Positions 1,683 to 64,000 of a stretch of 64,000 nucleotides of DNA are shown in pieces. The stretch covers positions 2,746,501 through 2,810,500 of the forward strand of contig NZ_CP045434.1 in the NCBI RefSeq assembly GCF_009363895.1. The letters run 5' to 3'. Each line of letters opens with the position of its first letter. The first letter of the stretch is position 1. The notes under the pieces are model-generated. The model did not search any database. It had not been told where the DNA came from and saw nothing but the letters and a program-made list of their open reading frames with translations. This DNA is from Sphingomonas ginsengisoli An et al. 2013. Its GTDB lineage: Bacteria; Pseudomonadota; Alphaproteobacteria; Sphingomonadales; Sphingomonadaceae. The position numbers and the translations under genes are program-made.

Positions 1683-1768
1683 TGGTGGAGAGGGCTGGAT
1701 TCGAACCAGCGTACGCTTGCGCGGGCAGATTTACAGTCTGCTGCCTTTAACCACTCGGCCACCTCTCC
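1683..1768 (-). tRNA. tRNA-Tyr (anticodon GTA)
   Basis: On the minus strand the acceptor arm GGAGAGG (1762-1768) pairs with CCTCTCC (1687-1693), followed by discriminator A and an encoded CCA. The anticodon loop reads ACTGTAAAT, giving GTA. A long variable arm (class II) and a GGTTCGAATCC T-arm are present. A TTGACA at 1809-1814 (minus strand) is suitably placed as a -35 box, but no good -10 follows. Confidence 0.95.
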
Positions 1769-1828
1769 ACGAGGCGCGGGGGCGCTCTTGGCGGTGGGGG
1801 GCCAAGCTGTCAACGCCTTGACGGGCGA

Positions 1829-3445: not shown

Positions 3446-3501
3446 GCCTTGCTCCCCGTCCTGATCAGGATGGCGAGCCTAGCGTGGCCGAACCGACGAC
3501 G

Positions 3502-48030: not shown

Positions 48031-48041
48031 GCGCGGGGGCC

Positions 48042-48062
48042 GCAGCGGAGTGAATCCGCTGC
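48042..48062 (+). terminator. Hairpin after the plasmid-stabilisation-like gene
   Basis: GCAGCGGA/TCCGCTGC arms of 8 bp around a 5-nt loop, followed by GTCGTCGG with no T tract. A possible terminator, similar in stem to that at 13484. Confidence 0.4.
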
Positions 48063-48167
48063 GTCGTCGGACGGGCTAGCTTGCAGCTACCCGCCGGCCG
48101 CCCTTTCGCATCTCTCGACCAAGCTTGTCCGCGTCGCGGACTGAGCTTGCTCTCGGTGCTTCAGGGT

Positions 48168-48216
48168 TGGATGCCCGACGTGGATTCGAACCACGATTGA
48201 CGGAGTCAGAGTCCGT
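48168..48216. repeat. attL: 49-bp direct repeat, displaced 3' end of tRNA-Gln
   Basis: Identical over 49 bases to 63084-63132. It matches only the 3' part of the tRNA (from the anticodon arm through the T arm to CCA), so it is not a working tRNA. It lies just beyond the integrase stop and marks the left border of the island. Confidence 0.95.
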
Positions 48217-48242: not shown

Positions 48243-49400
48243 CTAGGCGCCTTGCTGCATCGGTGTTGCATCAATCTCGCCGAGAACTTCGCGTTCGACG
48301 GCTTGCACGACCGCGGAGTCCGCGTCCGCCTGCTCGAACAAATGGCCGTAGGTGTCGAATGTCACCTGGATCGAACTGTGACCCATCCAGGTCTGAACGC
48401 GCTTAGGGCTCACGCGCTGCTCGATCCACAAGGATGCAGCGCAATGTCGAAAGGCGTGGCTGGAATAGCGAGCGTCTTCCCCATCACACACCCTGGCCGC
48501 CATCTGCACTGGCCAAATGTGTAGGCGATGAAGGGAGGTATGTGAGATGATCGCCTTGCGCTCGGACGGGAACACGAGGTCAAGATTAGTGCGGGGGCAT
48601 TGGAGTTTCCACTTTCGCAGCTCGGAAACGACGAGATCGGGCAAGGGGATGATCCTAAAGCCAGCCGCAGACTTCGGCGCTCCGATCTGACCCTTGGCAT
48701 CGGCACGGCGATCAATCGTCAGTGTCTTTGTTTTCAGGTCGACCTGGGACCATACCATTCCGCGCACTTCGGAGGCTCGGGGGCCACAGAAGATGTCTGT
48801 GACCACAAGGGGCGCATCCATCGGCAAGTCGGACGCCTGTGCCGCTCGGATGATCGCCTTCATCTCCGCCTTGGTGGGAATAACCGGTTTCACCTTCTCA
48901 CGGTTTGCCTTGCGGACGGTCACACCTGAACAAGGGTTTTTCGCGAGATAACCTCGCCGCTCTGCCTCGGCGACAATGGCAGTCAACGAGCGCAACACTC
49001 GCCGCGCCATCGATCGTGAGAGCTTGTCGAGCAAATCGTCCCGAAAGCCTTCAACTATGGGCTTGGTCAGCTGGCTGAGCTTTCGAACGCCACACAGAGG
49101 AACAATATGCAGCCGAACGTGCTGCTCATACGCGGCGACGGTCGTCGGCTCCAAGTTCTCCCGCCTACCTTGATCAAGCCATAGCTGTGCTGCTGCCTCG
49201 ACCGTGATAGACTTGGAATCGGGCGTATGCGTGCCCTGCTTCACCTCCCAGGATGCATTCACAAGCCACGCTTCGGCTTCCTTCTTCCGCGTGAACTGCT
49301 TCGATCTCCGATGCCCACCGGCATCACGATAATCGACTAGCCAAGCTGTCTTTGTCTCTCCTGCCGGGGAGGTCCAGCTGCGTTTACGGATCGAGGACAT
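48243..49400 (-). CDS. Tyrosine-type site-specific integrase
   Basis: Predicted 385 aa. Catalytic residues: R208 (GPRASEV), K243 (PKSAAG), H315 and R318 (HAFRHC), H341 (GHSSI) and Y351 (TYGHL). N-terminal arm-binding region about 1-60 and a core-binding domain about 63-165. It lies next to attL, the far border from the intact tRNA. It starts 3 nt after the stop of the gene at 49404-50027, so both are one transcript. It should catalyse integration into and excision from the tRNA-Gln site. Confidence 0.95.
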   Translation of the reverse strand: MSSIRKRSWTSPAGETKTAWLVDYRDAGGHRRSKQFTRKKEAEAWLVNASWEVKQGTHTPDSKSITVEAAAQLWLDQGRRENLEPTTVAAYEQHVRLHIVPLCGVRKLSQLTKPIVEGFRDDLLDKLSRSMARRVLRSLTAIVAEAERRGYLAKNPCSGVTVRKANREKVKPVIPTKAEMKAIIRAAQASDLPMDAPLVVTDIFCGPRASEVRGMVWSQVDLKTKTLTIDRRADAKGQIGAPKSAAGFRIIPLPDLVVSELRKWKLQCPRTNLDLVFPSERKAIISHTSLHRLHIWPVQMAARVCDGEDARYSSHAFRHCAASLWIEQRVSPKRVQTWMGHSSIQVTFDTYGHLFEQADADSAVVQAVEREVLGEIDATPMQQGA

Positions 49401-49403
49401 GGA

Positions 49404-50027
49404 CTAACTCAGACTATCTTCGTTGGCCCACTCGCTCGACCAACTCATAAGATCGGTCGCTACTTCGATCGGTTCGAGTCCGGCGCATCGGCCAATATGC
49501 TGTCCAACGAGCATAAGTCGCGCGCCGAGATTGATGAGTATGGCAGCAGGCTCCACGGCGGGATCTTTGTTCAACTGCTCCGTGAACTCCCTGCCGGTCT
49601 GGACCATGATCAATGCGCCTTGATCGTCACCTCGCGGGAGAGTCAGTGCGAAAACCGAAGCGACCGCGAACTGCGTAATGCCGAAGGGGCACCGCGCCTT
49701 CATCAATGCCTTCACCAGTGCCTCGGTGCTCCCGAAACCGGTCACTACCATGTGGACTGCTCCGATAAGTCGATCGGAGTTTTGCCTGACACTTCTGGTC
49801 GCCAGGTCAGGTGTGAGACCCAGGTCGATGAGATCGAGCGCGACCATTAGTTGAATGACCTGCACCCACCCGTAGGTCGCTTTCGTGCCTCGCCCGGTGT
49901 TGACGCCTGAAGGGAACTTCAAGCGCTGGAAATGCTGCAAACGACCACGAAAGGCGACTGCCCTTTCGGCCGGTATGTCGAAGCGTGCGGCGAACACCGC
50001 TTCGACTTGGTTGAACGTCAGGTTCAT
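49404..50027 (-). CDS. Unknown protein cotranscribed with the integrase
   Basis: Predicted 207 aa. CTGGAG lies 7 nt before the ATG. A helical segment, YGWVQVIQLMVALDLIDLGL followed by TPDLATRSVRQN, resembles the DNA-binding half of MerR-like regulators but without a confident match. Placed directly before the integrase, it may control integration or excision. No family recognised. Confidence 0.5.
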   Translation of the reverse strand: MNLTFNQVEAVFAARFDIPAERAVAFRGRLQHFQRLKFPSGVNTGRGTKATYGWVQVIQLMVALDLIDLGLTPDLATRSVRQNSDRLIGAVHMVVTGFGSTEALVKALMKARCPFGITQFAVASVFALTLPRGDDQGALIMVQTGREFTEQLNKDPAVEPAAILINLGARLMLVGQHIGRCAGLEPIEVATDLMSWSSEWANEDSLS

Positions 50028-50137: not shown

Positions 50138-50317
50138 ATGAACCTGGATTTGATTGAAGGCGCGAATGACGCGGCCGCGTTTACCGGCTTGTCGCGCCGG
50201 AAGATTTATCGGCTCGCAGAGCGGGGGCATGTCCCTGTCATACGCAAGGGCCGGCGGCTCTACTTCCGTAAGTCAGAGCTGGAACGCGCCTTCATGAGCG
50301 CGGGAGAGCTCCTGTGA
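50138..50317 (+). CDS. AlpA/excisionase-like HTH protein
   Basis: Predicted 59 aa from the ATG at 50138 with GGAGG upstream. A compact winged-HTH of the excisionase type: NDAAAFTGLSRRKIYRLAER then GHVPVIRKGRRLYFRKSELE. Such proteins bind DNA and act as regulators or recombination directionality factors. Its stop overlaps the next gene's GTG (GTGA), so the two are coupled. Confidence 0.8.
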   Translation: MNLDLIEGANDAAAFTGLSRRKIYRLAERGHVPVIRKGRRLYFRKSELERAFMSAGELL

Positions 50318-51210
50318 GATCGGCGGTCAAAAAGTCGTCAACTCCCGTCAGACGACCAAGCGCATCGGCACGCAAAATCTCCGCGATGCGCCGACGCGAT
50401 TTTAGCTGCCCACGGCGGTCCATTCCGCGTTTGAACGCCTTGAAACAAGAGCGGGATTCTATCGCCGAGAAAGAACGCGCTTTGTTAGGTGAGCTACTCA
50501 CTGACGACGAGACGCGGCGTCGCATCCGCACCGGCTATGGCGAGGTCAGCCACCCCACATCAGTATGGAACGATTGCGACCAAACATGGGACCACACGAA
50601 GCATGCACCATACGAGCTTCCTGAGTGGAGAAACCTCTCAGAGCGTATGAAGATGTTCCTTGGGTTCGATCTGGGAATGGAGCTCGGCTGGTGCTTTCCG
50701 TTCACAGCAAATCTTTCCCCGACATATGTGGAGACATGGGAGGCCAATGGTTCCGGGTTTATGGCTAACATCGACCAGCGGCTTCGCAGGGAGCTCATGA
50801 AGCTTGAACTTTGTAAGCTCCCTTTTTGTTATGTCGTTGAAAGCCGCACGCGGTCAGGGAAGGCTCGTTGCAAGCCACACCTCCACGGCATTGCTATTTG
50901 TGACGATCCCTTGAAAGCAACGAAGTTCAAGGTCGCGCTGGAACACGCCTTCGTCGGTGACCTAAAGCGCAATGGGCGTCGGCGTTCAGTTAAGGTGGAC
51001 CGCGGCTACCAATGCTCCAAGCTCGGCGTGGAAGGCCGTGTCCGATGGGTCGAATACATCACCAAGAACGTGCATCTCTATGACGAACGGCTTGGGCGAC
51101 GGAGAGTCTACATCAGCCATTCCTACATTGCTCTCGCTCGCGAGGCTTGGGCAATCAGACGTGACGAGTTTGCGCTCGAGCCTTCGGTAAGGGCGCTCGC
51201 TATTCTTTGA
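50314..51210 (+). CDS. Candidate HUH-endonuclease replication protein
   Basis: Predicted 298 aa from a GTG with GGGAGAG upstream. The N-terminal 65 residues are basic. It has a Rep-like order of motifs: FTANLSP (130-136), PHLHGIAIC with the HUH-like H189-L-H191, and VEYITKNVH with candidate catalytic Y248 followed by K251. This matches rolling-circle initiators in general shape. If correct, the island may have a replicative stage, perhaps as an excised circle. Not recognised as a named family, so the call is inference. Confidence 0.55.
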   Translation: MRSAVKKSSTPVRRPSASARKISAMRRRDFSCPRRSIPRLNALKQERDSIAEKERALLGELLTDDETRRRIRTGYGEVSHPTSVWNDCDQTWDHTKHAPYELPEWRNLSERMKMFLGFDLGMELGWCFPFTANLSPTYVETWEANGSGFMANIDQRLRRELMKLELCKLPFCYVVESRTRSGKARCKPHLHGIAICDDPLKATKFKVALEHAFVGDLKRNGRRRSVKVDRGYQCSKLGVEGRVRWVEYITKNVHLYDERLGRRRVYISHSYIALAREAWAIRRDEFALEPSVRALAIL

Positions 51211-52661: not shown

Positions 52662-55454
52662 ATGAACGCCGTCGAGATCGAAGAAGCCGTATCAGAGCTG
52701 GCTGGCGAGCCGTTCGACAGGGACGAGTTTGCATTCCAGTTCCTGACGGCGTTCGGCATGAAGGACACGACAGTCAGACGGCTGCGGACAGGCTCATCCA
52801 ACAGTTCCGACGTGCCTGGCGGCGTCCTCCAGCGCAGCAACATTCACATTGCGATCTCACCGGCTGGTCAGGTCGGCGAGACATTGGCAGCCCTCCGCGC
52901 CAGCCCCAAAACGGTGGCTAGCAAGGCCAAGTTCATTCTCACGACGGATGGCGGCACCCTAGAGGCAGAAGACTTAGCCTCCGGCGAGGCGATGGCGTGC
53001 GAGTATGCGGATCTGCCGCTGCATTTCGGCTTCTTCCTGCCCTTGGGCGGGATCTCGACCGTCACCGAGATCAAGAACAACCCGATTGACATCAAGGCGA
53101 CCGGACGGCTCAACAAGCTCTACGTCGAGTTACTCAAAGACAACGCCGATTGGGGCGCCAAGGAGAAGCGGCCCGCGCTGAACCAGTTCATGGCGCGGTT
53201 AATCTTCTGCTTCTTTGCAGAGGATACGGGCATTTTCCTGGGAGACGGACTGTTCACCAGCACGGTTGCCCGCATGAGCGCCCCCGGCCATGGCAGCGGC
53301 GAAGAGCGGTGGGGCAATACTCACGAGGTGCTGGCTGAGCTGTTCCGTTCCATGGCGACAGACACGCGACACAACGGCCAGCTCGACAGTCGCCACCGTA
53401 GGAACGCCGGGATTAAGAGCTGGGCCGATGCATTCCCCTATGTGAATGGCGGCCTGTTCAGTGGCAGCGTCGAGTGTCCGAAGTTCAGCCGCATCGCCCG
53501 ATCCTATCTCCTGCGCGCCGGCGAGCTAAGCTGGAAGGAGATAAATCCCGACATCTTCGGTTCGATGATCCAGGCCGTGGCAGATGACGACGAGCGCGGC
53601 GAGCTCGGCATGCACTACACAAGTGTGCCGAACATCCTTAAAGTCTTAAATCCACTTTTCCTCGACGACCTCCGCGAGCAGCTGGAGGCCGCTTCTGATA
53701 ATATCCGAAAGCTCCGTAACCTGCGGAAGCGCATCGCCGGCATTCGTGTGTTCGATCCGGCCTGCGGATCGGGCAACTTCCTCGTAATCGCTTACCTCAA
53801 AATGCGAGAGATCGAGCACGAGGTTGTGCAGCGGACTGGCGATGACCCACGCTCATTGATCCGGCTCACGAACTTCTACGGCATCGAGATCAAGAGCTTC
53901 GCCGTGGAGATTGCCCGCCTGTCGCTCCTCATCGCAGAGTTCCAGGCCGATTGCCGATACATTAGTCAACACGAGGCTCGTGCCATGGTGCTGCCGCTCC
54001 ATCGAACTGGCCAGATCCATGTTGGCAATGCACTGCGCATCAACTGGCAAACTATCTGCCCGGTAGTATCGTCCGAAGTTGTTGAGCACGATCTAGCGGG
54101 GCCGACGGGGCGCCTCTCGCTCGACAGCGATGGGACTGCGGGCGAGGTCTTCCTCTGCGGGAATCCTCCCTATAAGGGCAGCCAAGATCAGACACCCGAA
54201 CAAAAGGCTGATGTCCGGGAAGCTTTTGATGACCCTACAGCTTCGACAGGCACTGCTGACTATGTTCTCGGCTGGTTCGCCAAAGCTTGCAACTTCATCC
54301 GATCGTCAGAGGGCGCATTTGCCTTCGTAACCACAAACAGTGTTCACCAAGGCCGGCAGGTTGCGCGTTTCTGGCCCAAACTTTTGAAAGACGATCTTGA
54401 GGTTTGCTTCGCCGAGCCTTCCTTTCGGTGGTCAAATCTTGCGGCCAATAAAGCTGTCGTCACGGTTTCGATCATCGGCATTGCTCGCAACGGGCTTCGT
54501 CCAAAGGTCATTTTCGACGCTGGTTTGGCAAAGCGAGCAACGGTCATCGGTCCGTATCTTGTCCCGGATCAGCTGACCATAGTTGAGGAGCGGCGCCGAG
54601 TTCTCTCGGAGGTCGCTCCGATGTCGTTTGGGAGCATGCCCAATGACGGGGGTCATCTTCTGCTCTCAAGCGAAGAACGCGAAACTGCGCAAGCTTCTGG
54701 CGTGCCGGAAGCATGGGTCCGACGCTTCTTAGGGACCAATGAGCTGACGAAGGGTCTGCTGAGATACTGCCTCTGGCTCACTGATGCGCCGAGGGAGGAA
54801 TGGGCCGCAGTCCCGTTTGTGAAGCAAAGGGTTTGCGCCGTCTTACGCAACCGAGTGAAAAGCTCGCGAGACGCAACAAGATCACTGGCAAGAGTGCCGC
54901 ATCGCTTTGGCGAGATCCGTCAGACCGGCCGCGAGCTTGTAATCGCGGTGGGCGGAGTCTCCTCGGAAAGGCGAGAATACCTGCCCGTCGATTGCTTCGA
55001 ACGTGGTTCAATCATCTCGAACCTTGCCTTCGGCCTGTTTGATGTGCCGCTCTGGTATCTTGCGATCATCGCGTCGCGACTGCACCTCGTTTGGGTCGCG
55101 ACGGTGTGCGGTAAGCTAGAAACGCGCTATCGCTACTCCAACACGCTAGGGTGGAACACCTTTCCGCTGCCGAGGCTCACGGCTGCACAAAAAGACGAGC
55201 TTACTGCGCGTGCTCAAGGCATCCTGCTAGCTCGCGAAGCGTGTTTCCCCGCGAATATCACAGAGCTTTATGAGTCGGATGACATGCCTGATGACTTGAG
55301 GGCCGCGCACGCCGCAAATGACGACACTTTGGAACGCATCTACATCGGTCGGCGCTTCCGAAACGACACCGAGCGTTTGGAAAAGCTGTTCCAACTTTAC
55401 GGCACCATGATTGCCGCAGAAGCTAAGACCAAAAAAGCGAAACCCGCATCATGA
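52662..55454 (+). CDS. MmeI-like N6-adenine DNA methyltransferase, nuclease motif lost
   Basis: Predicted 930 aa. An MmeI-type N-terminal region (FAFQFLTAFGM, VPGGVL), the helical spacer DIKATGRLNKLYVELLKDNA, SAM motif I DPACGSGNF (365-373), and NPPY catalytic motif (501-504). The C-terminal TRD-like part contains CGKLETRYRYSNTLGWNTFP. MmeI itself carries a D...ExK nuclease site near its N-terminus; here the corresponding stretch reads NIHIAIS with no ExK. So it probably methylates but does not cut, leaving that to downstream proteins. The stop overlaps the helicase start (ATGA). Confidence 0.85.
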   Translation: MNAVEIEEAVSELAGEPFDRDEFAFQFLTAFGMKDTTVRRLRTGSSNSSDVPGGVLQRSNIHIAISPAGQVGETLAALRASPKTVASKAKFILTTDGGTLEAEDLASGEAMACEYADLPLHFGFFLPLGGISTVTEIKNNPIDIKATGRLNKLYVELLKDNADWGAKEKRPALNQFMARLIFCFFAEDTGIFLGDGLFTSTVARMSAPGHGSGEERWGNTHEVLAELFRSMATDTRHNGQLDSRHRRNAGIKSWADAFPYVNGGLFSGSVECPKFSRIARSYLLRAGELSWKEINPDIFGSMIQAVADDDERGELGMHYTSVPNILKVLNPLFLDDLREQLEAASDNIRKLRNLRKRIAGIRVFDPACGSGNFLVIAYLKMREIEHEVVQRTGDDPRSLIRLTNFYGIEIKSFAVEIARLSLLIAEFQADCRYISQHEARAMVLPLHRTGQIHVGNALRINWQTICPVVSSEVVEHDLAGPTGRLSLDSDGTAGEVFLCGNPPYKGSQDQTPEQKADVREAFDDPTASTGTADYVLGWFAKACNFIRSSEGAFAFVTTNSVHQGRQVARFWPKLLKDDLEVCFAEPSFRWSNLAANKAVVTVSIIGIARNGLRPKVIFDAGLAKRATVIGPYLVPDQLTIVEERRRVLSEVAPMSFGSMPNDGGHLLLSSEERETAQASGVPEAWVRRFLGTNELTKGLLRYCLWLTDAPREEWAAVPFVKQRVCAVLRNRVKSSRDATRSLARVPHRFGEIRQTGRELVIAVGGVSSERREYLPVDCFERGSIISNLAFGLFDVPLWYLAIIASRLHLVWVATVCGKLETRYRYSNTLGWNTFPLPRLTAAQKDELTARAQGILLAREACFPANITELYESDDMPDDLRAAHAANDDTLERIYIGRRFRNDTERLEKLFQLYGTMIAAEAKTKKAKPAS

Positions 55455-57511
55455 CTTCGGACCGCACCTTTCCTTCGGTCTCATTCGAGACGGCTAAAAC
55501 AGGCGCTTCGTCAAAGGCTGACGAGTTTGGAATGCGCGTTATGCAACAGCGCGCTTATGCGAAACGCGGCGAGCAGTATTTACTAATCAAGTCGCCGCCA
55601 GCGTCGGGCAAGTCGCGTGCGTTGATGTTCATCGCTCTCGACAAGCTCCAGCATCAGGGGCTCAAGCAGGCGATTATCGTTGTTCCCGAAAAGTCGATAG
55701 GTGGGAGTTTCGCGGACGAGCCGCTGTCGCAACATGGGTTCTGGGCCGACTGGGAGGTAAAACCGCAGTGGAACCTATGCAATGCACCTTCGATCGACGA
55801 GCCAAGGGTTGCGAAGTCGAAGGTCAAGGCCGTCGGTGAGTTTCTGGCCAACGGCGATCAAGTGCTTGTCTGCACGCATGCCACATTTCGATTTGCGGTC
55901 GATGAGCTCGGCGTCGAAGCCTTCGACGATCGGCTGATCGCCATCGATGAGTTCCATCATGTGAGCTCTAACGACGACAATCGGCTGGGAATCCAACTCC
56001 GGCAGTTCATGGCCCGTGATAAGTCGCATCTGGTAGCCATGACCGGCAGCTACTTTCGCGGTGATGCGGAGCCGGTGCTTCTTCCTGACGACGAGGCGAA
56101 GTTCGAGACTGTCACTTACACCTACTACGAACAGTTGAACGGATACGAGCACCTCAAGTCGCTCGACATCGGCTACTTCTTCTACACCGGCCCCTACCTC
56201 GATGCGATCATGAAGGTGCTCGAACCGTCATTGAAGACGATCGTGCACATTCCGAATGTGAATGCGCGAGAGAGCACGAAGGACAAGATCCGCGAGGCCG
56301 AGGAGATCATGGACGGCCTCGGTAAGTGGAAGGGCACCGATCCAACTACGGGCTTTCAGCTGATCGAGACGGCGAACGGCAAGACGCTCAAGGTGGCCGA
56401 TCTCGTCGATGACGATCCCTCGAAGCGCGGCGGAGTTGTCGAGGCGCTCAAAGACCCCGCCCATCGCAACGATCGTGATCATGTAGACATCATCATTGCC
56501 TTGGGCATGGCGAAAGAAGGTTTCGACTGGATCTGGTGCGAGCACGCATTGACGGTCGGCTATCGTAGTAGCCTGACTGAGATCATCCAGATCATCGGCC
56601 GCGCCACCCGCGACGCCCCAGGCAAGGAGCGCGCACGCTTCACGAATCTCATTGCGGAGCCCGATGCTTCGGAAGCAGCGGTGGTAGACGCGATCAACGA
56701 CACGCTTAAGGCAATCGCCGCGAGCCTCCTGATGGAACAGGTGCTGGCGCCGCGCTTCAACTTCACGCCCAAGAATGCTGGTCCGTTGCCAGGCTATGAG
56801 TATGTCGGCGGCTATCAGGAAGGCGAAACTAATGTCGGCGTGAATGAAGAGCACGGTCTCTTCCATTTCGAGATCAAGGATCTCGTCGAGCCGAAGAGCG
56901 CCGAGGCCACTCGCATTTGCCGCGAGGACTTGAACGAGGTGATCACCGCCTTCGTCCAGGACAAAACGGCCCTCGAGAAGGGCATGTTCGATCCCGAAAC
57001 TGCGCCCGAAGAGCTTACTGTCATGCGGATGGGGAAGATCGTCCGCGAGCGCTATCCTGATCTCGACGAAGAGGATCAGGAGGCTATCCGTCAGCACGCA
57101 ATCGCGGCGCTCAACCTGACCCAGCAGGCGAAGAAACTCGCAGCCGGCGACGAAGCGGAAGGTGAGATCAAGGCGAACACGGCGCTGATCGATGGGGTGA
57201 AGAAGTTCGCGTTGAGCGTGACGGAGCTCGATATCGATTTGATCGACCGCATCAATCCCTTCGAGGCGGCCTACGCTATCCTGGCTAAGTCGATGAGCGA
57301 GGGGACGCTCAAACAGGTGGCGGAGACGATCGCTGCTCGAAAGGTCAGCCTCACGCTGGAGGAGGCTCGTGACCTGGCCAAGCGCGCATTGAAGTTCAAG
57401 CAAGAGCGCGGCCGCCTACCGGAGATCGCTTCACAGGATGCCTGGGAGCGGCGCATGGCGGAAGGCGTAGCCTTCCTTGCCCGCAAGGCAGCCGAGGCCG
57501 CGAATGGTTGA
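55451..57511 (+). CDS. SF2-family helicase, DEAD/DEAH-like
   Basis: Predicted 686 aa. Walker A PPASGKS (49-55), Walker B-type box DEFH (166-169), motif III AMTGSYF and motif VI QIIGRATRD (380-388). C-terminal half is helical without a recognised extra domain. It may load or translocate the restriction complex, or unwind target DNA. Coupled at both ends to its neighbours (ATGA with the methylase; 8-nt overlap with the GIY-YIG gene). Confidence 0.85.
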   Translation: MTSDRTFPSVSFETAKTGASSKADEFGMRVMQQRAYAKRGEQYLLIKSPPASGKSRALMFIALDKLQHQGLKQAIIVVPEKSIGGSFADEPLSQHGFWADWEVKPQWNLCNAPSIDEPRVAKSKVKAVGEFLANGDQVLVCTHATFRFAVDELGVEAFDDRLIAIDEFHHVSSNDDNRLGIQLRQFMARDKSHLVAMTGSYFRGDAEPVLLPDDEAKFETVTYTYYEQLNGYEHLKSLDIGYFFYTGPYLDAIMKVLEPSLKTIVHIPNVNARESTKDKIREAEEIMDGLGKWKGTDPTTGFQLIETANGKTLKVADLVDDDPSKRGGVVEALKDPAHRNDRDHVDIIIALGMAKEGFDWIWCEHALTVGYRSSLTEIIQIIGRATRDAPGKERARFTNLIAEPDASEAAVVDAINDTLKAIAASLLMEQVLAPRFNFTPKNAGPLPGYEYVGGYQEGETNVGVNEEHGLFHFEIKDLVEPKSAEATRICREDLNEVITAFVQDKTALEKGMFDPETAPEELTVMRMGKIVRERYPDLDEEDQEAIRQHAIAALNLTQQAKKLAAGDEAEGEIKANTALIDGVKKFALSVTELDIDLIDRINPFEAAYAILAKSMSEGTLKQVAETIAARKVSLTLEEARDLAKRALKFKQERGRLPEIASQDAWERRMAEGVAFLARKAAEAANG

Positions 57512-58691
57512 GCAGTCCGATCGAGACCTTCTCGCTGAGCTTGGCGTCGACTTTCAGACCAAAAGGGTTAGGGCTCGCACTCCGCGTGAGGAGCGGATCA
57601 TTGCCGGCTTCGAGGACATCATGCGCTTTCACGAAGAGCATGGTCGTGTTCCGCAGCATGGTGAGGACAAAGATACATTCGAGCGACTGTTTGCGATTCG
57701 TCTGGATCGACTGCGCGAGCAGGATGACTGTCGCGAGCTGCTCCAGGGCATAGACCGTTTTGGCCTTCTCGATGCGCCGGCCGATGGTCTAGTCCAAGAT
57801 CCCGACGCGCTCGACGACGAGGCGCTACTTGCAGAGCTCGGCGTCGAGATCGGAAGCGAAACAGACATACGCACGTTGAAGAATGTGTCTTCGCAAGCTG
57901 AGAGGCGCGCCTCGGAGGAGATCGCGTCACATACTCCATGCCGCGACTTCGAGACGTTCGAGCCGATGTTCGATGTTGTTCAAAGCCAACTCGTTAATGG
58001 CGAAAGAACTACGAGACCGTTCGGTAAGGATGCGAGCATTTCGAAGGGGGACTTCTTCATCCTCCGAGGACAGTTGGCTTACGTCGCTGAGATAGGTGAG
58101 ACTATCAAGGCACCCAACGGTCAGTTCGATGCGCGTTTGCGAGTGATCTACTCCAATGGAACGGAAAGCAACCTCTTGCGGTGGTCGCTGCAACGAGCGC
58201 TTTACAAAGATGATGCGGCTAGGCGCGTTTCAGAGCCTGCCGCAGGACCGCTGTTTGGCGAAGAGGCTGATAACGCCGACCATGAGAGCGGAACGATATA
58301 TGTGCTGCGAAGCAAGTCCGATCACCCTGCGATCGCTCCACACCGCGAGGTGCTGCACAAGATTGGCGTGACCGGAGGTGAGGTCAGCTCTCGCGTTGCC
58401 GGAGCTTCGCAGAGCCCGACTTTCCTTTTCGCGGATGTTGAGATCGTCGCGACCTATAAGCTCTTCAACATAAATCGTGCGAAGCTAGAACACCTCATTC
58501 ACAGGGTGTTCGCGGGGGCTCGACTACAGGCAAGATTTACTGATCGATTTGGTGCGCCGGTCGAGGCTAAGGAATGGTTCTTCGTCCCGCTGAACGTCAT
58601 AGACGAGGCTGTCGGAAGGATACGCGATCAGACGATCACTCGTTATCGGTATGACCCCTCAACCGCGAAGCTGTCGCCCTCAGACGAGTAG
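57504..58691 (+). CDS. GIY-YIG family nuclease with long N-terminal region
   Basis: Predicted 395 aa from the ATG at 57504. The N-terminal 260 residues are unassigned. The C-terminal domain fits T5orf172/Mug113-type GIY-YIG nucleases: GTIYVL (263-268), KIGVTGG with YIG changed to KIG (286-292), R297, and E329 in KLEHLIHRVF, the usual order of catalytic residues. Probably the cutting subunit of the three-gene operon. Its 3' end overlaps the serine recombinase gene by 49 nt. Confidence 0.75.
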   Translation: MVEQSDRDLLAELGVDFQTKRVRARTPREERIIAGFEDIMRFHEEHGRVPQHGEDKDTFERLFAIRLDRLREQDDCRELLQGIDRFGLLDAPADGLVQDPDALDDEALLAELGVEIGSETDIRTLKNVSSQAERRASEEIASHTPCRDFETFEPMFDVVQSQLVNGERTTRPFGKDASISKGDFFILRGQLAYVAEIGETIKAPNGQFDARLRVIYSNGTESNLLRWSLQRALYKDDAARRVSEPAAGPLFGEEADNADHESGTIYVLRSKSDHPAIAPHREVLHKIGVTGGEVSSRVAGASQSPTFLFADVEIVATYKLFNINRAKLEHLIHRVFAGARLQARFTDRFGAPVEAKEWFFVPLNVIDEAVGRIRDQTITRYRYDPSTAKLSPSDE

Positions 58692-59392
58692 CGCTTTGTG
58701 ACTGTTGTTGATGTCTCCGCCCCCGACAACCGCATGACAGTTCTCACCTGAGCCGCGCTCCAGGCGCCACCGCGTGGCGCAACGATACCGCGTTCGTTCA
58801 ACGCTGTTGCTATCGCTCGCAGGCTAATAGCACCTCGGGCCTGAACCTGCTTTACCTGCGCCATGACCTTCTCGGCGCGCTTTCGGGAAGTCTCGGATCT
58901 TGCGGTTGCACTAGCAGCTGGTCCCTTGAGCAGGTCGGGCATATTCCCGCGAGAGCCACCTAACTTAATCCCGCGTGCCTTCGCTGCAGCCAGTGCTTCT
59001 TTGGTCCGCTTAGAAATGGCCTTGCGCTCCGCTTGCGCGACCGCCGCCATGATATGGATAGTCAGCTCATTGGCCTCAGGCATGTCGACGGCGAGGAAAC
59101 GAGTGCTGCGGTCTTGAAGCGTAGCCAGGAACGCTACGTTGCGACTCAGCCTATCGAGCTTCGCGACAATCAATGTCGCACCGGTGAGCTCGCAGTGGGC
59201 GAGTGCACTTTCCAGCTCAGGTCGCCGATCGATCTTGCCTGATTCGACTTCAACGAACTCACCGATGAGTTCCCAATCTGACGAGCACAAGAACTCTTGC
59301 ACGGCCCGCCGTTGAGCCTCCAATCCCAAGCCGCTCTTCCCCTGCTTGGCGGTGCTCACACGGTAGTAGGTCACTGCCTTCTTCGTTTTCAT
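58643..59392 (-). CDS. Serine recombinase (resolvase/invertase family)
   Basis: Predicted 249 aa from the ATG at 59392 (MKTKKAVTYYRVSTAKQGKS), with Ser13 as nucleophile. Arg and Glu of the family follow in KLDRLSRNVAFLATLQDRST and AEANELTIHIMAAVAQAERK-like sequence (VDMPEANELTIHIMAAVAQA). C-terminal HTH: SLRAIATALNERGIVAPRGG. Convergent with the GIY-YIG gene. A GCAACGGTCGTTGC palindrome lies upstream at 59410-59423, a possible recombination or operator site. Confidence 0.88.
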   Translation of the reverse strand: MKTKKAVTYYRVSTAKQGKSGLGLEAQRRAVQEFLCSSDWELIGEFVEVESGKIDRRPELESALAHCELTGATLIVAKLDRLSRNVAFLATLQDRSTRFLAVDMPEANELTIHIMAAVAQAERKAISKRTKEALAAAKARGIKLGGSRGNMPDLLKGPAASATARSETSRKRAEKVMAQVKQVQARGAISLRAIATALNERGIVAPRGGAWSAAQVRTVMRLSGAETSTTVTKRYSSEGDSFAVEGSYR

Positions 59393-59409
59393 CTGCTGTT
59401 CCATCAGTA

Positions 59410-59423
59410 GCAACGGTCGTTGC
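59410..59423. promoter_or_regulatory. Palindrome upstream of serine recombinase
   Basis: GCAACG/CGTTGC arms of 6 bp with a GT centre, 18 nt before the recombinase start codon. Could be a res-type site or an operator; no second copy seen nearby. Confidence 0.35.
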
Positions 59424-59601
59424 GACTAGTGAAACGCCCCAAAGGAGAAGCCAAGGAAGAGAATCGCAGCGCACGCAGAAATAGGTGCCCTTCTCACGCG
59501 GGAAGATCAGTCAAGAGGAAGTCCTAGAATCACCAAGCGCAGATCACCCGGATGGCGCCTATTTGTGGTGACTTCGGTGCCTTATCCCATCCACAGGCAC
59601 A

Positions 59602-61200
59602 TCAGGCAAAAGCACCTGCCGTGACCTTAGGCCGCAGCTTAGGAAAGCGTGCGCTGAATGACTCCACCATTATCTCGCACGACCGTTCCGTAAGACTTTC
59701 AAAGCCATCTTCGTCAAACTGAAGTAAGACAGCATCGTGCACCGGCAGGAGGATCGCGTCCATTCCAACAGCGTCACTGATCTTCAGAAGGGCTTCTTTG
59801 AAAATAAGAGATGCAGTGGCCTGAACTGGCTGATTCAAAGCCCATCTTTTTTCTTTGGACGTCAAATCTCCATCAGTGACCCGGTAACGTTTGTTGCCTA
59901 CGAGACTACCAACGGAGCCCTCGCTTCGGAGCTTCGACTGCTGATCACTTTTGAACCGCTCTAAGGCTGGGAAGCGCGCGAAAAACGCCGAGATTTGTTG
60001 CGCATAAGCCTCCCGCAAAGATGATTCTTCGTTCTTGCCAGCAAGCAGCAGCGAGATCCGCTCGGGAGTCATTCCGTAGGAGAAAGCAAGAAACACGCGC
60101 TTCGCAACGGAGCGCATTTCCGAGGAGCCAAAGAGCTGCATTGCAAGAGCGGTGTAAAGGTCGCCTTCGTTGTAGGCGGCGATCAGGTCGTCATCGTCAA
60201 CGAGACCAGCGAGCACGCCCGGTTCAAACTGAGCGTAATCGAGATAGATCAGCCTCTTCCGCGGTTCCGCGACAATGAGTGAGCGATAAGCGCGTCGTAA
60301 CTGCTGCAGATAAGGGTCAGACACCAAGATCCGCCCGCTGACGGTGCCTAGAATGCTGAAGAATGGATGCAACCGATCGTCAGCACCTACAGCTCGGCGA
60401 ACGACCGCCTCGTCTCTCGCGGCTTTAACCATAGTGAGGAATGCACCGGCAAACATCGACACAGTGGATGCAATCTCGAATGCGTCCTGCAGCCGCCCAC
60501 CAGGCTCGACATCAGATAGATGGGAAACATCGGTGTTTCTGAGGTGCTCTTGAATGTTCCAAAAGTTTAGCCCCGTAGGGCTCATCTTCAGCGTTTCTGC
60601 GACAACCCGGTAAGCAGAATACTTCTCCTCCGAAAGCGAGGTAAGAAGAGCCGTGGCGCCCGTAGAATCCACCGGCACTCCTCGGAACTGCCGATGTGAG
60701 AAGATCTTCTGTAAAGGCCATTCCACTAGAAAAAGGCGCTCCAACTCGTCGCGACCAAGATGCTTTGCGAGGTCTATCCATAAACGGGAGAGTGCGTCGG
60801 CGGCCAAGCTTAGGAGCGCCGAGAGTTCTTCAGTGTCCGGACGCTCGTGTCTGGCCTGCACGACCGATTGAAAAAGCTTCGCCTGCTCGGTGTCTCGGAA
60901 GTGCCTACTAAGTGCACGCCAAAGGTTCCAACGCTTCTCGCCTCCCTCGTCTCGTGGGAGACCAACCTTGAGCCTGAGGGCTTCGCCTATGTCGACGAGT
61001 CCGGTAGGAGGCGATTGGTTAAGCCTTCGAAGATCATCGATAAGGGCAGGAACGTCGTAGGTGAGTATCGGCCCCCGCACTGAGCCCAGCTCAGATGCTG
61101 ACAGGAAGCGCACTTCACCCTCTGCCGTTTTCAGACAGAAGCGTGACGCCTGCACCGCGAAGGGATCGGGCACATACGTGAGGACAGTGAGGTCAATCAT
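59602..61200 (-). CDS. Family A DNA polymerase domain protein
   Basis: Predicted 532 aa from the ATG at 61200 (AGGGA 5 nt upstream). The C-terminal 360 residues are a PolA-type polymerase: motif A DYAQFEPGVL (D321), motif B AKRVFLAFSYG (K367, Y375), motif C PVHDAVLLQF (H488-D489), and the template/primer loop GTVSGRILVSDPYLQQL. The N-terminal part resembles a degenerate 3'-5' exonuclease (LTYDVPALIDDL, GLVDIGEAL). There is no 5' nuclease. It overlaps the reverse transcriptase by 8 nt. It is not a normal Pol I, and is likely a partner polymerase of the RT. Confidence 0.85.
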   Translation of the reverse strand: MIDLTVLTYVPDPFAVQASRFCLKTAEGEVRFLSASELGSVRGPILTYDVPALIDDLRRLNQSPPTGLVDIGEALRLKVGLPRDEGGEKRWNLWRALSRHFRDTEQAKLFQSVVQARHERPDTEELSALLSLAADALSRLWIDLAKHLGRDELERLFLVEWPLQKIFSHRQFRGVPVDSTGATALLTSLSEEKYSAYRVVAETLKMSPTGLNFWNIQEHLRNTDVSHLSDVEPGGRLQDAFEIASTVSMFAGAFLTMVKAARDEAVVRRAVGADDRLHPFFSILGTVSGRILVSDPYLQQLRRAYRSLIVAEPRKRLIYLDYAQFEPGVLAGLVDDDDLIAAYNEGDLYTALAMQLFGSSEMRSVAKRVFLAFSYGMTPERISLLLAGKNEESSLREAYAQQISAFFARFPALERFKSDQQSKLRSEGSVGSLVGNKRYRVTDGDLTSKEKRWALNQPVQATASLIFKEALLKISDAVGMDAILLPVHDAVLLQFDEDGFESLTERSCEIMVESFSARFPKLRPKVTAGAFA

Positions 61201-62824
61201 AGTCCCTATCCACATCTATTATGCGCGTGATCGACCTGGGTTCAGGAGGCGCCATATACCGTCCTGCGCGGCCCAAGCCTCGATAGACATTCCTTAGGTC
61301 ATCTCTGAGATGGGGCTGAACATGCTCTTCGATGTGCGGCCTAAAATGAAGCTCTTGAACAGCGATCAGTGCAGCTCGCTGTCCGATGAAAGAGTCTAAA
61401 CTCCGGAAACGTTGAGCTATCAACGCGCGCTGCTGATCGTTCCCGAATGCTCCGAGATATAAGGTCGCCCCGCAGCGTGTGGCGTTGTCCGGCTGCTCCT
61501 GCACGACCGTCGCCGCGTAAGCCAGAAGCTCCTCGGTTCTGTGTTCCTTCTGCACGAGCAACTGCCAGAGGCGATAGTTTTGCCAAGTGTAAAAGTTTCG
61601 CCGATCGTCCTGAAGCAGAGCGGCCACTTGGTTGAGGTCGTCCGCGCTCGTTGGGACCGCCCTGATGTATCGCGCTAACTCATCAGTAGCTGCGGGATGC
61701 GCCGTGAGAGCTTCGATGACCAGCGGAGTTATAGCTGCAAAATATGGCGGAGGAACCGCGAACTCTGGACTACTGGCAAGGGTTTCTAGTCGCCGAATAC
61801 AGTAGCGGAACGTGCGACTGCCGACCTCCCCCGCTCTGAGCTTCCTTTGAGTGAGTTCACTTAGCAAAGGGAATGAACGGCTGATTGATCTTAGTGATCT
61901 AGTCTGCCAAATCGCATCAATCTGTTGAAGTTCACCCTGACCGGCATCCAGGCATTCAGCAATCTGCGTTACTTCATGTGAGTTCGGCATCGTTGTCTTG
62001 CCGGAGTTTACCGACAGGCCGCGACTACGAAGATGGAGACTTAGCTGCTTCAAGGCTTGTCTCGCTGTGAAGCGATCGCCGCAAGCGATCTTAATATCAT
62101 CCATATAGCGAAAGTATTGGTAGCCGGACTCGATCATCGCTCGGTCGACCGGGAGCATGTAAACGTTAGCCAGGAAAGACGAGGCGTCCCGGTTTTGTGG
62201 CAAACCGCAGCGTTCAGAGAAACACCACTCGGTCAGACACTCGAACAGGGCTGCAATGTGAGCGCGAATGTGTCCCTTTTCGACGGGCGAAGCGGCAAGC
62301 TCCGGTATGAGCCCCTCTAAAGTTTGACGTAGAATGTTAAGATCGATGTTCTCGAAATAGTTGGTCAAGTCGGTTGAGAGGAGCACCGACCCCTCAACGA
62401 GAGTGTTCCGAACCATGCCGGTGAAGTCCTGCCACGCAGGCACGGGCCGCCGAAACAGATAGCGATCAGCCGCAGAGCCGGAAGCTGCTCGATGGCTGAA
62501 AACATTCCACGGCATCAGCGGATCATAAAAGGGCACCAGATACGAGGTGAGAGCGTGATAGAGAGCTCGATCGGCCAAACCTGTCTCTAGACCGTAGCGA
62601 AGAGTGAAGTTGCCTTTCGGGATGTTAAGTATGGTGCGACGACCCGCTCGAAAGGCGCCATCGTTCCGTTGAAAGTTGTCTGCAATGATCTGCTCTACGT
62701 GACCCCGGTCGAAGAGATCCTCGAATCTGAGAGGGTCCGGAAACCAGTCGTCGGCCAGGTCCCTCCGCAGCTGACGCAACACCTTGGCTTCGTCAAACTG
62801 GATGGGGCCCAGGTCGATGGACAA
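61193..62824 (-). CDS. Reverse transcriptase, UG/Abi-like
   Basis: Predicted 543 aa from a TTG at 62824, chosen because GGGAG lies 5 nt upstream; an upstream TTG at 62848 has no binding site. RT landmarks: NIPKGNFTLRYGLETGLADR (residues about 67-86), motif A LSTDLTNYFENID (Asp152), GLPQNRDASSF (207-217), and YMDD (240-243). The C-terminal 250 residues are all helical (HEAT-like), the layout described for class 1 UG/Abi reverse transcriptases. No maturase domain X or intron sequences. Coupled to the PolA-like gene. Confidence 0.88.
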   Translation of the reverse strand: MSIDLGPIQFDEAKVLRQLRRDLADDWFPDPLRFEDLFDRGHVEQIIADNFQRNDGAFRAGRRTILNIPKGNFTLRYGLETGLADRALYHALTSYLVPFYDPLMPWNVFSHRAASGSAADRYLFRRPVPAWQDFTGMVRNTLVEGSVLLSTDLTNYFENIDLNILRQTLEGLIPELAASPVEKGHIRAHIAALFECLTEWCFSERCGLPQNRDASSFLANVYMLPVDRAMIESGYQYFRYMDDIKIACGDRFTARQALKQLSLHLRSRGLSVNSGKTTMPNSHEVTQIAECLDAGQGELQQIDAIWQTRSLRSISRSFPLLSELTQRKLRAGEVGSRTFRYCIRRLETLASSPEFAVPPPYFAAITPLVIEALTAHPAATDELARYIRAVPTSADDLNQVAALLQDDRRNFYTWQNYRLWQLLVQKEHRTEELLAYAATVVQEQPDNATRCGATLYLGAFGNDQQRALIAQRFRSLDSFIGQRAALIAVQELHFRPHIEEHVQPHLRDDLRNVYRGLGRAGRYMAPPEPRSITRIIDVDRDYD

Positions 62825-62835
62825 GCTAACTCCCG

Positions 62836-62871
62836 CTAGCCGACGCAAAAAGCGTGGGCCTATCCGGCTAG
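62836..62871 (-). promoter_or_regulatory. Hairpin directly before the reverse transcriptase RBS
   Basis: CTAGCCG/CGGCTAG arms (62836-62842, 62865-62871) with inner arms ACGC/GCGT around a 5-base homopolymer loop. On the minus strand it ends immediately before GGGAG and the TTG start. Could control translation or mark the 3' end of an upstream RNA. Confidence 0.5.
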
Positions 62872-63083
62872 GTAAATGTGGTCAGAATGCGAACCTAGTC
62901 CAGAACTAATCCATGTTTCTACGGAAAGTTCGATGCGCGTCTCATCATGATGCATCCATGACGCATGGAAGCGCCGCAACTGGCTTGCAAACCGCGGGAA
63001 TCAGCGGAACACAGCCAAACGCAAAGGTTGTGACCTTTCATGCTCAATAGCCGGCATAACTGACTGAAAAGACCGAGAAAAGC
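62872..63083. other. Noncoding stretch between tRNA-Gln and the RT hairpin
   Basis: About 210 bases without a convincing ORF. It holds the palindrome CATCATGATG (62943-62952) and the inverted repeat TCCATG/CATGGA with a 3-nt spacer (62955-62969). Other RT systems carry a noncoding RNA upstream of the RT, so this is the place to look. Confidence 0.45.
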
Positions 63084-63132
63084 TGGATGCCCGACGTGGA
63101 TTCGAACCACGATTGACGGAGTCAGAGTCCGT
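63084..63132. repeat. attR: 49-bp direct repeat inside tRNA-Gln
   Basis: Perfect 49-base match to 48168-48216. It coincides with the 3' part of the tRNA gene. Recombination between the two copies would excise a 14,916-bp circle. Confidence 0.95.
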
Positions 63133-63157
63133 AGTCTTACCATTAGACGATCGGGCA
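63084..63157 (-). tRNA. tRNA-Gln (anticodon CTG)
   Basis: TGCCCGA acceptor (63151-63157) pairs with TCGGGCA (63088-63094), the discriminator is T and CCA is encoded. The D arm is GTCT...AGAC, the anticodon stem ACGGA/TCCGT encloses CTCTGAC, giving anticodon CTG, and the T arm is GTGGTTCGAATCCAC. This is the intact copy at the right border of the island, its 3' part supplied by the element. Confidence 0.93.
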
Positions 63158-63183
63158 GCGCGCTCGCTTGCGGTGCGGGCGCT

Positions 63184-63212
63184 CACCTAGGTCCGGGCCG
63201 AGTGGCTGTCAA
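63184..63212 (-). promoter_or_regulatory. Possible promoter of tRNA-Gln
   Basis: TTGACA (63207-63212) and TAGGTG (63184-63189) on the minus strand with a 17-nt spacer. The -10 is poor. Confidence 0.35.
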
Positions 63213-63303
63213 CTTGCGGTCGGCGCCGACTTGAGCCTACAACGGTGGCAAGTCAGCCGGTTACCGCAAGGCAGCGCGGCGCAGGAAAGAAGACAGGTCA
63301 CCG

Positions 63304-64000
63304 ATGGCGTCGCACCCGACCGCCAGTGCGCCCCAGCCCCGCCCGTCGGCGGCCGCGGCCAACGCCAAGCTCCCGCCCCCCGGCGCGTCGCGCCACACCT
63401 ACGCCGCGATCGATCTTGGCACCAACAATTGCCGGCTGCTGATCGCCCGCCCCCACGAGGGCAGCTTTGTCGTGGTCGACGCCTTCAGCCGGATCGTCCG
63501 CTTGGGCGAGGGGCTGGCGAGTAGCGGGCGGCTGAGCACGGCGGCGATGGACCGCGCGGTGGAAGCGCTCGGGGTGTGCGCCGACAAGCTCAAGCGGCGC
63601 CGGGTCAGCCTTGCCCGCTCGGTCGCGACCGAGGCCTGCCGCCGCGCCGCCAACGGCCGCGACTTCATCGCCCGGGTCCACGACGAGACCGGGATCGCGC
63701 TCGAGATCATCCCCCCGCAGGAGGAAGCGCGACTTGCGGTGCTCGGCTGCCACAAGTTGCTCGAGCCGGGTGACGGGCCGGCGCTCATCTTCGACATCGG
63801 CGGCGGCTCGACCGAATTGGTGCTGGTCGAGCCCGGCGACGAGGAGGAAGGCGCGCCGCCGCGGATCAAGGCGTGGTGGAGCGCGCCGTGGGGCGTGGTC
63901 AGCCTGACCGAGAGCGAGGGCAAGGAAGCGCTCGAGGGGCCCGACCGCGTCGCCGCCTACCGCCGGATGGTCGAGCGGGCGCGCTACAGCTTCGCGCGCT
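63304..64000 (+). CDS. Ppx/GppA phosphatase, C-terminus cut by window edge
   Basis: Open from an ATG at 63304 to the right edge (232 codons, no stop). After an Ala/Pro-rich N-terminus, YAAIDLGTNNCRLLIARPHE, RSVATEACRRAANGRDFIAR and LIFDIGGGSTELVLVEPGDE are the phosphate-1, family and phosphate-2 motifs of exopolyphosphatase/guanosine pentaphosphate phosphatases. It degrades polyphosphate or pppGpp. First intact chromosomal gene to the right of the island. Confidence 0.88.
   Translation, partial: MASHPTASAPQPRPSAAAANAKLPPPGASRHTYAAIDLGTNNCRLLIARPHEGSFVVVDAFSRIVRLGEGLASSGRLSTAAMDRAVEALGVCADKLKRRRVSLARSVATEACRRAANGRDFIARVHDETGIALEIIPPQEEARLAVLGCHKLLEPGDGPALIFDIGGGSTELVLVEPGDEEEGAPPRIKAWWSAPWGVVSLTESEGKEALEGPDRVAAYRRMVERARYSFAR

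What the first reader, a model, noticed from the sequence alone, without database searches (positions are those of the whole stretch)
59602..62824. Reverse transcriptase coupled to a family A DNA polymerase
Seen: an RT with intact YMDD and helical C-terminus overlaps by 8 nt a PolA-type polymerase that keeps all catalytic carboxylates but has no 5' nuclease. Two polymerases of different origin in one coupled unit suggest the RT makes a cDNA that the second enzyme extends or makes double-stranded. Knowledge: UG/Abi RTs with helical C-termini are anti-phage proteins, and I recall surveys listing some groups next to family A polymerases, unverified here. Inference: a two-polymerase defence system, possibly with an RNA from the upstream gap.
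Basis: partly seen in the sequence, partly recalled or inferred. Interest (0 to 1): 0.88.

Follow-up and report, generated by a model that had tools for sequence, protein, structure and literature searches.

The report
Paired reverse transcriptase and DNA polymerase
A bacterial genomic island carries two overlapping genes, a reverse transcriptase and a stripped-down DNA polymerase, that belong to an already catalogued but unexplained candidate anti-phage system; sequence evidence suggests that the first enzyme may start DNA on its own tail and the second may extend or copy it.

Summary
At 61193-62824 (-) lies a 543-aa RT (D152, YMDD 240-243) that overlaps by 8 nt a 532-aa family A polymerase at 59602-61200 (-). 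It is a catalogued pair: PADLOC RT_UG9_small (690 bits) and RTasPolA (451 bits); a survey gives 94% co-occurrence. My searches listed no functional study. New here: (1) the RT model matches DRT6, DRT4 and AbiK, class 1 RTs, over about 456 of 543 residues. (2) Its poorly ordered C-terminal tail ends in a near-invariant Tyr: 44 of 44 intact DNA loci, 107 of 111 proteins, Ser there in three of the other four. DRT9 and DRT10 prime DNA from such residues. (3) In one integron cassette the pair travels with a 63-nt leader, so a separate upstream ncRNA is unlikely. (4) PolA keeps the polymerase residues checked, is Leu762-type, and lacks the 5' nuclease and two proofreading carboxylates. (5) The pair sits in a 14.9-kb tRNA-Gln island with a type IIG restriction gene; a relative has the empty site. 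Best model: the RT self-primes single-stranded DNA and PolA makes it duplex, as defence. Priming, duplex product and defence are untested; invariant Tyr77 is a competing primer candidate.

The parts
61193..62824 (-). UG9 reverse transcriptase, 543 aa, TTG start; RT core about 1-295, alpha-helical repeats about 297-517, low-confidence tail 531-543
   Evidence: (RT_UG9_small 8.3e-208 on the longer ORF)
59602..61200 (-). RT-associated family A DNA polymerase (RTasPolA), 532 aa, ATG start; no 5' nuclease, degenerate 3'-5' exonuclease region
   Evidence: (RTasPolA 1.1e-135)
61193..61200 (-). 8-nt overlap of the RT end and the polA start; 41 of 44 loci with an intact RT end have the same TAT-G arrangement
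61199..61201 (-). codon of RT Tyr542, penultimate residue, candidate priming residue
62369..62371 (-). RT catalytic Asp152 (motif A)
62096..62107 (-). RT YMDD motif, residues 240-243
60238..60240 (-). PolA catalytic Asp321 (aligned to Taq D610)
59734..59739 (-). PolA His488-Asp489 (aligned to Taq H784-D785)
60088..60090 (-). PolA Leu371, at the position of E. coli Phe762 / Taq Phe667 (Leu762 type)
62825..63083 (-). 259-nt gap between tRNA-Gln and the RT; no conserved or known RNA found
48168..48216 (.). left attachment repeat: 49 nt identical to the 3' end of tRNA-Gln
63084..63132 (.). right attachment repeat inside tRNA-Gln
63084..63157 (-). tRNA-Gln (CTG), integration target
48243..49400 (-). 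tyrosine integrase of the island (PF00589)
52662..55454 (+). MmeI-like type IIG restriction-modification enzyme (island cargo)
55451..57511 (+). helicase-like protein; DEAD and ResIII matches lie just below Pfam's cut-offs (island cargo)
57477..58691 (+). T5orf172 / MUG113 (GIY-YIG-type) domain protein (island cargo)
58643..59413 (-). serine recombinase (resolvase N-terminal domain)

Best explanation
A UG9 defence-associated RT operon carried by a tRNA-Gln genomic island. The RT (class 1 fold: RT core plus helical repeats) attaches the first nucleotide to the hydroxyl of its own C-terminal Tyr542, which lies on a poorly ordered tail, and polymerises single-stranded DNA without a dedicated RNA template. 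The co-encoded family A polymerase, which as such needs a primer and has no 5' nuclease and an incomplete proofreading site, extends or copies that strand into protein-linked double-stranded DNA. Phage infection lets the product build up or releases a brake on it, which blocks the phage or kills the cell. Shown: the genes, their residues, overlap, co-occurrence, conserved tail residue, class 1 fold match, and mobile context with defence-type genes. Inferred: priming at Tyr542, lack of a template RNA, second-strand role of PolA, anti-phage outcome.
Confidence: 0.42

Rival explanations
1. RNA-templated variant: the RT copies a small RNA (its own mRNA leader, a host RNA, or an undetected ncRNA) from the C-terminal Tyr, as DRT9 and DRT10 do, and PolA makes the second strand.
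For: C-terminal priming residues are known from RNA-templated DRT9 and DRT10. The window has a 259-nt gap before the RT, and some leaders are conserved between pairs of loci (L036/L037 220 nt at 71%, L007/L024 61 nt at 84%).
Against: Fold match over most of the length is to class 1; no Rfam family; gap folding z -1.7; poor leader alignment among 8 relatives; a cassette member leaves 63 nt.
Confidence: 0.21
2. The RT primes from another residue (such as the invariant Tyr77) and the conserved C-terminal tail instead docks PolA or regulates the active site; product and outcome otherwise as in the best model.
For: Tyr77 is Tyr in 37 of 37 family-wide sequences and lies in a low-confidence loop of the fingers; the tail codon is tied to the polA start.
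Against: Tyr77 follows the invariant IPK...R segment and may be a general fingers residue; Ser replaces Tyr542 in three homologues, as expected of a hydroxyl donor; a C-terminal Tyr also occurs in most homologues of L051, an RT locus without this PolA.
Confidence: 0.12
3. The RT is a short-primer maker (primase-like) and PolA is the main synthesising enzyme, working on phage or host templates for repair or bypass rather than for making a toxic DNA.
For: Some CRISPR-associated RTs prime DNA synthesis (PMC10415136, start of the abstract seen); G2L4 RT structures are among the matches to the RT core; Leu762-type polymerases are described as slower and more accurate.
Against: Exonuclease carboxylates incomplete; carried on plasmids, integron cassettes and an island, in places beside defence genes; sporadic: no full-length match in the 148 relatives searched besides the genome itself.
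Confidence: 0.13
4. PolA is not an enzyme partner but a sensor, brake or structural subunit of an RT complex, and the RT-linked DNA alone is the effector.
For: DRT4, DRT6 and DRT1 are described as single-gene systems.
Against: PolA's catalytic residues are kept in 37 of 37 family-wide sequences, which is not expected of a catalytically idle subunit.
Confidence: 0.1
5. Passive neighbours: the RT and PolA are unrelated cargo brought together by island traffic.
For: Both lie in a mobile island.
Against: 47 of 50 loci, with the same overlap in 41 of 44; same 5 plasmid records by either query; r=0.988.
Confidence: 0.01

Closest known systems
PADLOC 'DRT' candidate RT_UG9_small + RTasPolA; UG9 of the myRT survey (PMC8934634, passages read)
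   Same: Same RT group by full-length profile, same PolA family, same adjacency (94% with PRK14975 in that survey's Table 4).
   Different: Nothing in kind; in the passages I saw, that survey and the 2014 tree (PMC4244168) list the group without a mechanism or priming residue.
DRT4 (UG15) and DRT6 (UG12)
   Same: Fold over about 456 residues (RT core plus helical repeats); described as working without an ncRNA.
   Different: Single-gene systems; 9-12% identity; no family A polymerase. The label UG12 for DRT6 is recalled.
DRT3 (two RTs making complementary repeat strands)
   Same: Two polymerases in one operon, product reported as double-stranded DNA.
   Different: Both DRT3 enzymes are RTs and one uses an ncRNA; here the second enzyme is a family A polymerase.
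DRT7 (RT fused to primase-polymerase)
   Same: An RT coupled to a second, unrelated DNA polymerising domain.
   Different: Fusion protein with a primase-polymerase; known to me from a review and an introduction only.
DRT9 and DRT10
   Same: Hydroxyl residue at the very C-terminus; SenDRT9's priming peptide ends YDYE, the window's RT ends RDYD.
   Different: They use an ncRNA template; the UG9 model matches DRT9 over only 252-257 residues.
Bacillus Pol I large fragment / KlenTaq
   Same: Fold (TM 0.64-0.76 in the 50 rows shown) and polymerase active site.
   Different: Shorter N-terminal region, Phe762 position is Leu, 19-22% identity.

Membership tests
UG9 RT + RTasPolA candidate DRT system | full-length match of the RT to the UG9 profile, above other UG profiles | tested here: met
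   RT_UG9_small 689.6 bits over 11-551 of the longer ORF; next RT_UG9_large 283, UG21 208
UG9 RT + RTasPolA candidate DRT system | adjacent RT-associated PolA | tested here: met
   RTasPolA 451.2 bits; 8-nt overlap
UG9 RT + RTasPolA candidate DRT system | placement inside UG9 by a phylogenetic tree | not tested
   only profile scores and alignments were used
UG9 RT + RTasPolA candidate DRT system | intact active-site residues in both enzymes | tested here: met
UG/Abi class 1 (AbiK, DRT4, DRT6 type) | RT core followed by alpha-helical repeat domain, matched over most of the length | tested here: met
   456 residues aligned to DRT6 and to DRT4
UG/Abi class 1 (AbiK, DRT4, DRT6 type) | template-free, protein-primed synthesis | not testable with these tools
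   needs biochemistry
Class 2 DRT (DRT2, DRT9, DRT10 type) | conserved ncRNA encoded in cis | tested here: inconclusive
   none found in the window; one cassette-borne relative leaves a 63-nt leader and 19 nt before the attC core
Class 2 DRT (DRT9/DRT10 type) | priming hydroxyl residue at the C-terminus | tested here: inconclusive
   a conserved Tyr/Ser is there but priming was not shown
Defence-associated RT (DRT) | phage resistance that depends on the RT | not testable with these tools
   needs phage assays
Group II intron RT | maturase domain and score above the family cut-off | tested here: not met
   RVT_1 only; group_II_RT_mat 55 bits against a cut-off of 300; no intron RNA in the Rfam scan of 58400-63400
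Retron | retron RT profile above cut-off | tested here: not met
   retron_St85_RT 32.4 bits against 235; the msr-msd RNA was not searched for apart from Rfam

The most novel reading that the evidence does not exclude
UG9-PolA is a two-protein, RNA-free DNA-writing immune system: the RT grows single-stranded DNA on its own C-terminal tyrosine and a dedicated, proofreading-dead family A polymerase turns it into protein-capped duplex DNA. That would be a third way for a DRT to make double-stranded DNA, besides DRT3's two RTs and DRT7's RT-primase-polymerase fusion, with the priming tyrosine codon physically embedded in the partner's start site.
Probability: 0.33. Interest if true: 0.8.

Novelty: new member of a known kind. 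Interest (0 to 1): 0.5.

Why it matters
UG9-PolA is an RT group with a near-obligate polymerase partner and, in the lists my searches returned, no functional study. The tail tyrosine, the class 1 fold and the cassette boundaries turn a catalogue entry into a set of single-residue predictions that can be tested in one laboratory host. If they hold, it would show how a replication-type polymerase was recruited to finish the product of an immune RT, and it might give a self-priming, RNA-free enzyme pair for making protein-linked duplex DNA.

Tried and rejected
Upstream ncRNA: the Rfam scan of 58400-63400 gave only the tRNA and one sub-threshold match; pairwise blastn of the regions upstream of 45 RTs (44 fetched loci, of which L051 is not UG9, plus the window) and downstream of the PolAs found 8 upstream and 5 downstream matching pairs, none with the window; alignment of 8 leaders had 50% mean column identity with only two bases of the start codon invariant; folding of the two window gaps gave z -1.72 and +1.61; no sigma-70-type promoter pattern in 59300-63200.

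AbiK-type and AbiA-type priming residues: judged absent in this protein because no Tyr lies in residues 1-75 or 265-330. The segments were matched by position, not residue by residue; Ser or Thr there were not examined, and Tyr77 lies just outside.

Automatic attC detection: my pattern found no attC in L016-L018; it demanded a strict core consensus and high arm symmetry. The attC claim rests on the 9-nt complement between cassette start and own attC and one folded attC (L017, z -2.2). An integron integrase was not looked for.

Fold lists: retrons, DGRs, LINE and R2 RTs also match the RT core; not informative.

Neighbours were not compared with each other by sequence, so a recurring third gene is not excluded (one search lists positions in 19 loci only).

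Mestre et al. 2022 (UG/Abi classification) is not held, so its class list was not checked.

The notebook still has the older tail limits and an earlier count (43 of 43).
Full report
1. The observation. The two ORFs are present as described. The RT runs 62824 to 61193 on the minus strand from a TTG preceded by GGGAG; near homologues align from this start. PolA runs 61200 to 59602 from an ATG inside the last RT codons; the overlap is 8 nt. RT D152, D242 and D243 are invariant in 31 of 31 near sequences (window included), M241 in 30 of 31, and the three Asp in 37 of 37 across the wider family, where the motif is YMDD in 11 and YVDD in 26. PolA D321, E326, R363, K367, H488 and D489 are 29 of 29 and 37 of 37; Y375 is 29 of 29 and 36 of 37.

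2. Identity. PADLOC profiles name them: RT_UG9_small at 689.6 bits over nearly the whole protein and RTasPolA at 451.2 bits. NCBIfam scores for the group II intron and St85 retron RTs are far below their cut-offs. The pairing is already in print: Table 4 of the myRT survey (PMC8934634, passages read) gives 94% co-occurrence of UG9 with PRK14975 in complete genomes; the 2014 analysis PMC4244168 (passages read) lists UG9 among Abi-related groups whose relationships it calls unclear. Library searches with UG9 or PolA beside RT terms (only the best 25, 40, 4 and 8 rows of 4,274, 93, 4 and 131 matching papers were listed) showed no functional paper on it. Most subscription papers are not held.

3. 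It is one unit. A genome-collection scan gave 54 loci and a viral-contig scan 5. I counted L007-L050, L061 and L062 as UG9 (tblastn identity 30% or more; six of them, L014, L016, L020, L027, L032 and L049, were profiled and all six are RT_UG9_small) and added three plasmid loci (L066-L068) and the window, 50 in all. 13 loci were dropped as other RTs (L051-L060, L063-L065; L051 profiles as UG21, L053 and L054 as UG19, the other ten were not profiled). 47 of 50 have the PolA next to the RT; the 3 without are L045-L047, RT fragments or contig ends. Some copies are broken or incomplete (RT in L013, L024, L025, L026, L042; PolA in L013, L022, L039). None of the 13 dropped loci has this PolA. In the plasmid collection the RT query finds 5 records and the PolA query the same 5, three of them one species; the phage collection has no match to the RT. 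RT and PolA distances correlate at r=0.988 over 36 loci with both proteins long enough, 0 of 2000 permutations reaching it; part of this is shared descent. In 41 of 44 loci with an intact RT end the last Tyr codon and the next base form the same TAT-G with the polA ATG.

4. Setting. In the window a 49-nt repeat of the tRNA-Gln 3' end stands at 48168-48216 and 63084-63132, with a tyrosine integrase next to the left copy. G+C is 0.56-0.59 between them (2-kb steps) against 0.65-0.72 to the left. In relative G008 one contig matches window 48039-48216 and, overlapping by exactly the 49-nt repeat, window 63084-63984 (75-76% identity): an empty site. So the pair lies in a 14.9-kb element next to its right end. 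Other cargo: an MmeI-like type IIG enzyme, a helicase-like protein, a T5orf172 protein and a serine recombinase. Of 149 genomes searched (the own one and 148 relatives), only the own one has a full-length match; five have weak partial RT matches that I did not profile. Elsewhere the pair is on conjugative and mobilizable plasmids. I scanned 10 large neighbouring ORFs picked by hand: 5 of 10 hit PADLOC models at E<=1e-10, namely a type III methyltransferase and a UvrD/GajB-like protein (L048), a full-length HamB (L021), a ZacB (L044) and a DEDDh/PDC-S48 protein (L061); 5 had no hit. This fits a defence role but does not prove it.

5. Integron cassettes. In L016, L017 and L018 (three genera) the pair is preceded by GTTATATCG and followed by CGATATAAC, exact complements; in L017 the second begins a region that folds as an attC-like hairpin. 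In L017 the cassette, by the usual crossover point, runs 1617-4968; taking the GTG at 1680 as RT start and 4881 as PolA end, there are 63 nt before the RT and 19 nt between PolA and the attC core. L017 and L018 share their near flanks inside the cassette and differ outside; downstream of L016 only the core is recognisable. If such a cassette works, two proteins suffice and a separate ncRNA of the usual DRT size has no room. My automatic attC pattern missed these sites, and no integrase was sought.

7. The tail. After a last helix at 513-517 the chain is extended; pLDDT falls to 57 at 531-540 and is under 50 at 539-543. Y542 is Tyr in 30 of 31 near sequences and Ser in the other; R540 and D541 are as conserved there but not in the wider family (7 of 37 each), where the column is Tyr in 36 of 37 and the 37th, L049, has a Tyr one place earlier. 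Among the 120 listed homologues, 111 are at least 530 aa; 107 have Tyr in the last three residues, and of the other four P0013, P0014 and P0052 end ERAS, ERDS and ERVS, i.e. Ser in the place of Tyr (P0014 by alignment, the others by eye), and P0119 ends SHDQS. Among 50 DNA loci, 6 were dropped for broken or cut RT ends (L013, L024, L026, L045-L047); 44 of 44 remaining have the Tyr, although the residues before it vary (RD, SP, SG, SE, NE and others). The codon is part of the polA ATG (TAT-G) in 41; that arrangement would also allow His, Asn or Asp, which never occur, and 3 loci without it (L010, L042, L049) still have Tyr. L051's RT (UG21 by profile), a locus without this PolA, ends SPYY, and 79 of 108 of its listed homologues of at least 515 aa have Tyr in the last three residues; these were not profiled. 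The eight RTs of L053-L060 (two profiled, both UG19) end in ...GL without it. All these counts include shared descent.

8. Why a primer. SenDRT9 primes from two tyrosines in a C-terminal peptide ending YDYE, and DRT10 from its C-terminal Ser, or probably Tyr in another member (PMC12483538 and PMC12632851, passages read). The Tyr/Ser exchange in UG9 is what a priming hydroxyl would allow. The window's RT has no Tyr in residues 1-75 or 265-330, which by position cover the mobile segments that hold the priming Tyr of AbiK (Y44) and AbiA (Y298/Y303). Against this: Tyr77, in a fingers loop of low confidence, is Tyr in 37 of 37 family-wide sequences and is a competing candidate; characterised class 1 enzymes do not prime from the C-terminus; and the tail could instead dock PolA.

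9. PolA. Profile alignment to Taq polymerase maps D321 to D610, E326 to E615, K367 to K663, Y375 to Y671 and D489 to D785, and puts Leu371 at F667 (E. coli F762; Taq and E. coli numbers recalled); Leu is 37 of 37. Leu762-type polymerases are described as slower and more accurate (PMC6302109, passages). The model (mean pLDDT 92.0) resembles Bacillus Pol I large fragment (TM 0.71-0.76). The first 120 residues look to me like a reduced exonuclease domain; the motif III Asp position is never Asp (0 of 29, 0 of 37) and the motif I Glu position is Phe, Tyr, Thr, Ser, Leu or Ala, while D12 (28 of 29, 32 of 37) and D49 (24 of 29, 33 of 37), which may match the other two carboxylates, are mostly kept. 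The motif I and II assignment is mine from sequence and is less sure. The host has its own full-length Pol I elsewhere, so this one is extra.

10. Mechanism. A family A polymerase needs a primer (established knowledge); the RT can supply one. The simplest joint model is self-primed single-stranded DNA by the RT, then extension or copying to duplex by PolA. DRT3 makes duplex DNA with two RTs (PMC13174585) and DRT7 couples an RT to a primase-polymerase (PMC13213688, first of two parts of the text read), so two-polymerase defence has precedent. Probability of this model as a whole: about 0.42; its fully RNA-free, duplex-making form about 0.33.

11. Verdict. A correct observation of an already catalogued, apparently uncharacterised defence candidate. 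The window's copy is a new member of a known kind. The added value is the tail tyrosine, the class 1 fold and the cassette boundary, which make the mechanism testable.

Noticed in passing
window 50314-51210 (+): Island ORF of 298 aa without Pfam or PHROG match; by eye it holds HLHG and YITKN, resembling the HUH and Tyr motifs of rolling-circle replication proteins (recalled motifs, not tested).
   Followed up: partly
window 49404-50027 (-): 207-aa ORF next to the integrase with no Pfam or PHROG match.
   Followed up: partly
L017 1617-4968, L018, L016: RT-PolA pair as an apparent integron gene cassette in Gammaproteobacteria of three genera.
   Followed up: yes
L051 6022-7620: UG21-type RT without this PolA that ends SPYY; 79 of 108 long homologues have Tyr in the last three residues, so C-terminal priming may extend beyond UG9.
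   Followed up: partly
L036/L037, upstream of the RT: About 220 nt upstream of the RT conserved at 71% between two loci; might be a leader or an upstream coding end.
   Followed up: no
L047: UG9-like RT fragment on a contig binned as a Micrarchaeota archaeon; possibly a binning error.
   Followed up: no
L021 1261-4314 (-): Full-length HamB (Hachiman) helicase near the UG9 pair in a Pseudomonas.
   Followed up: no
L066: In Paraburkholderia sprentiae the pair sits directly before a PRTRC gene cluster on a 488-kb conjugative plasmid.
   Followed up: no
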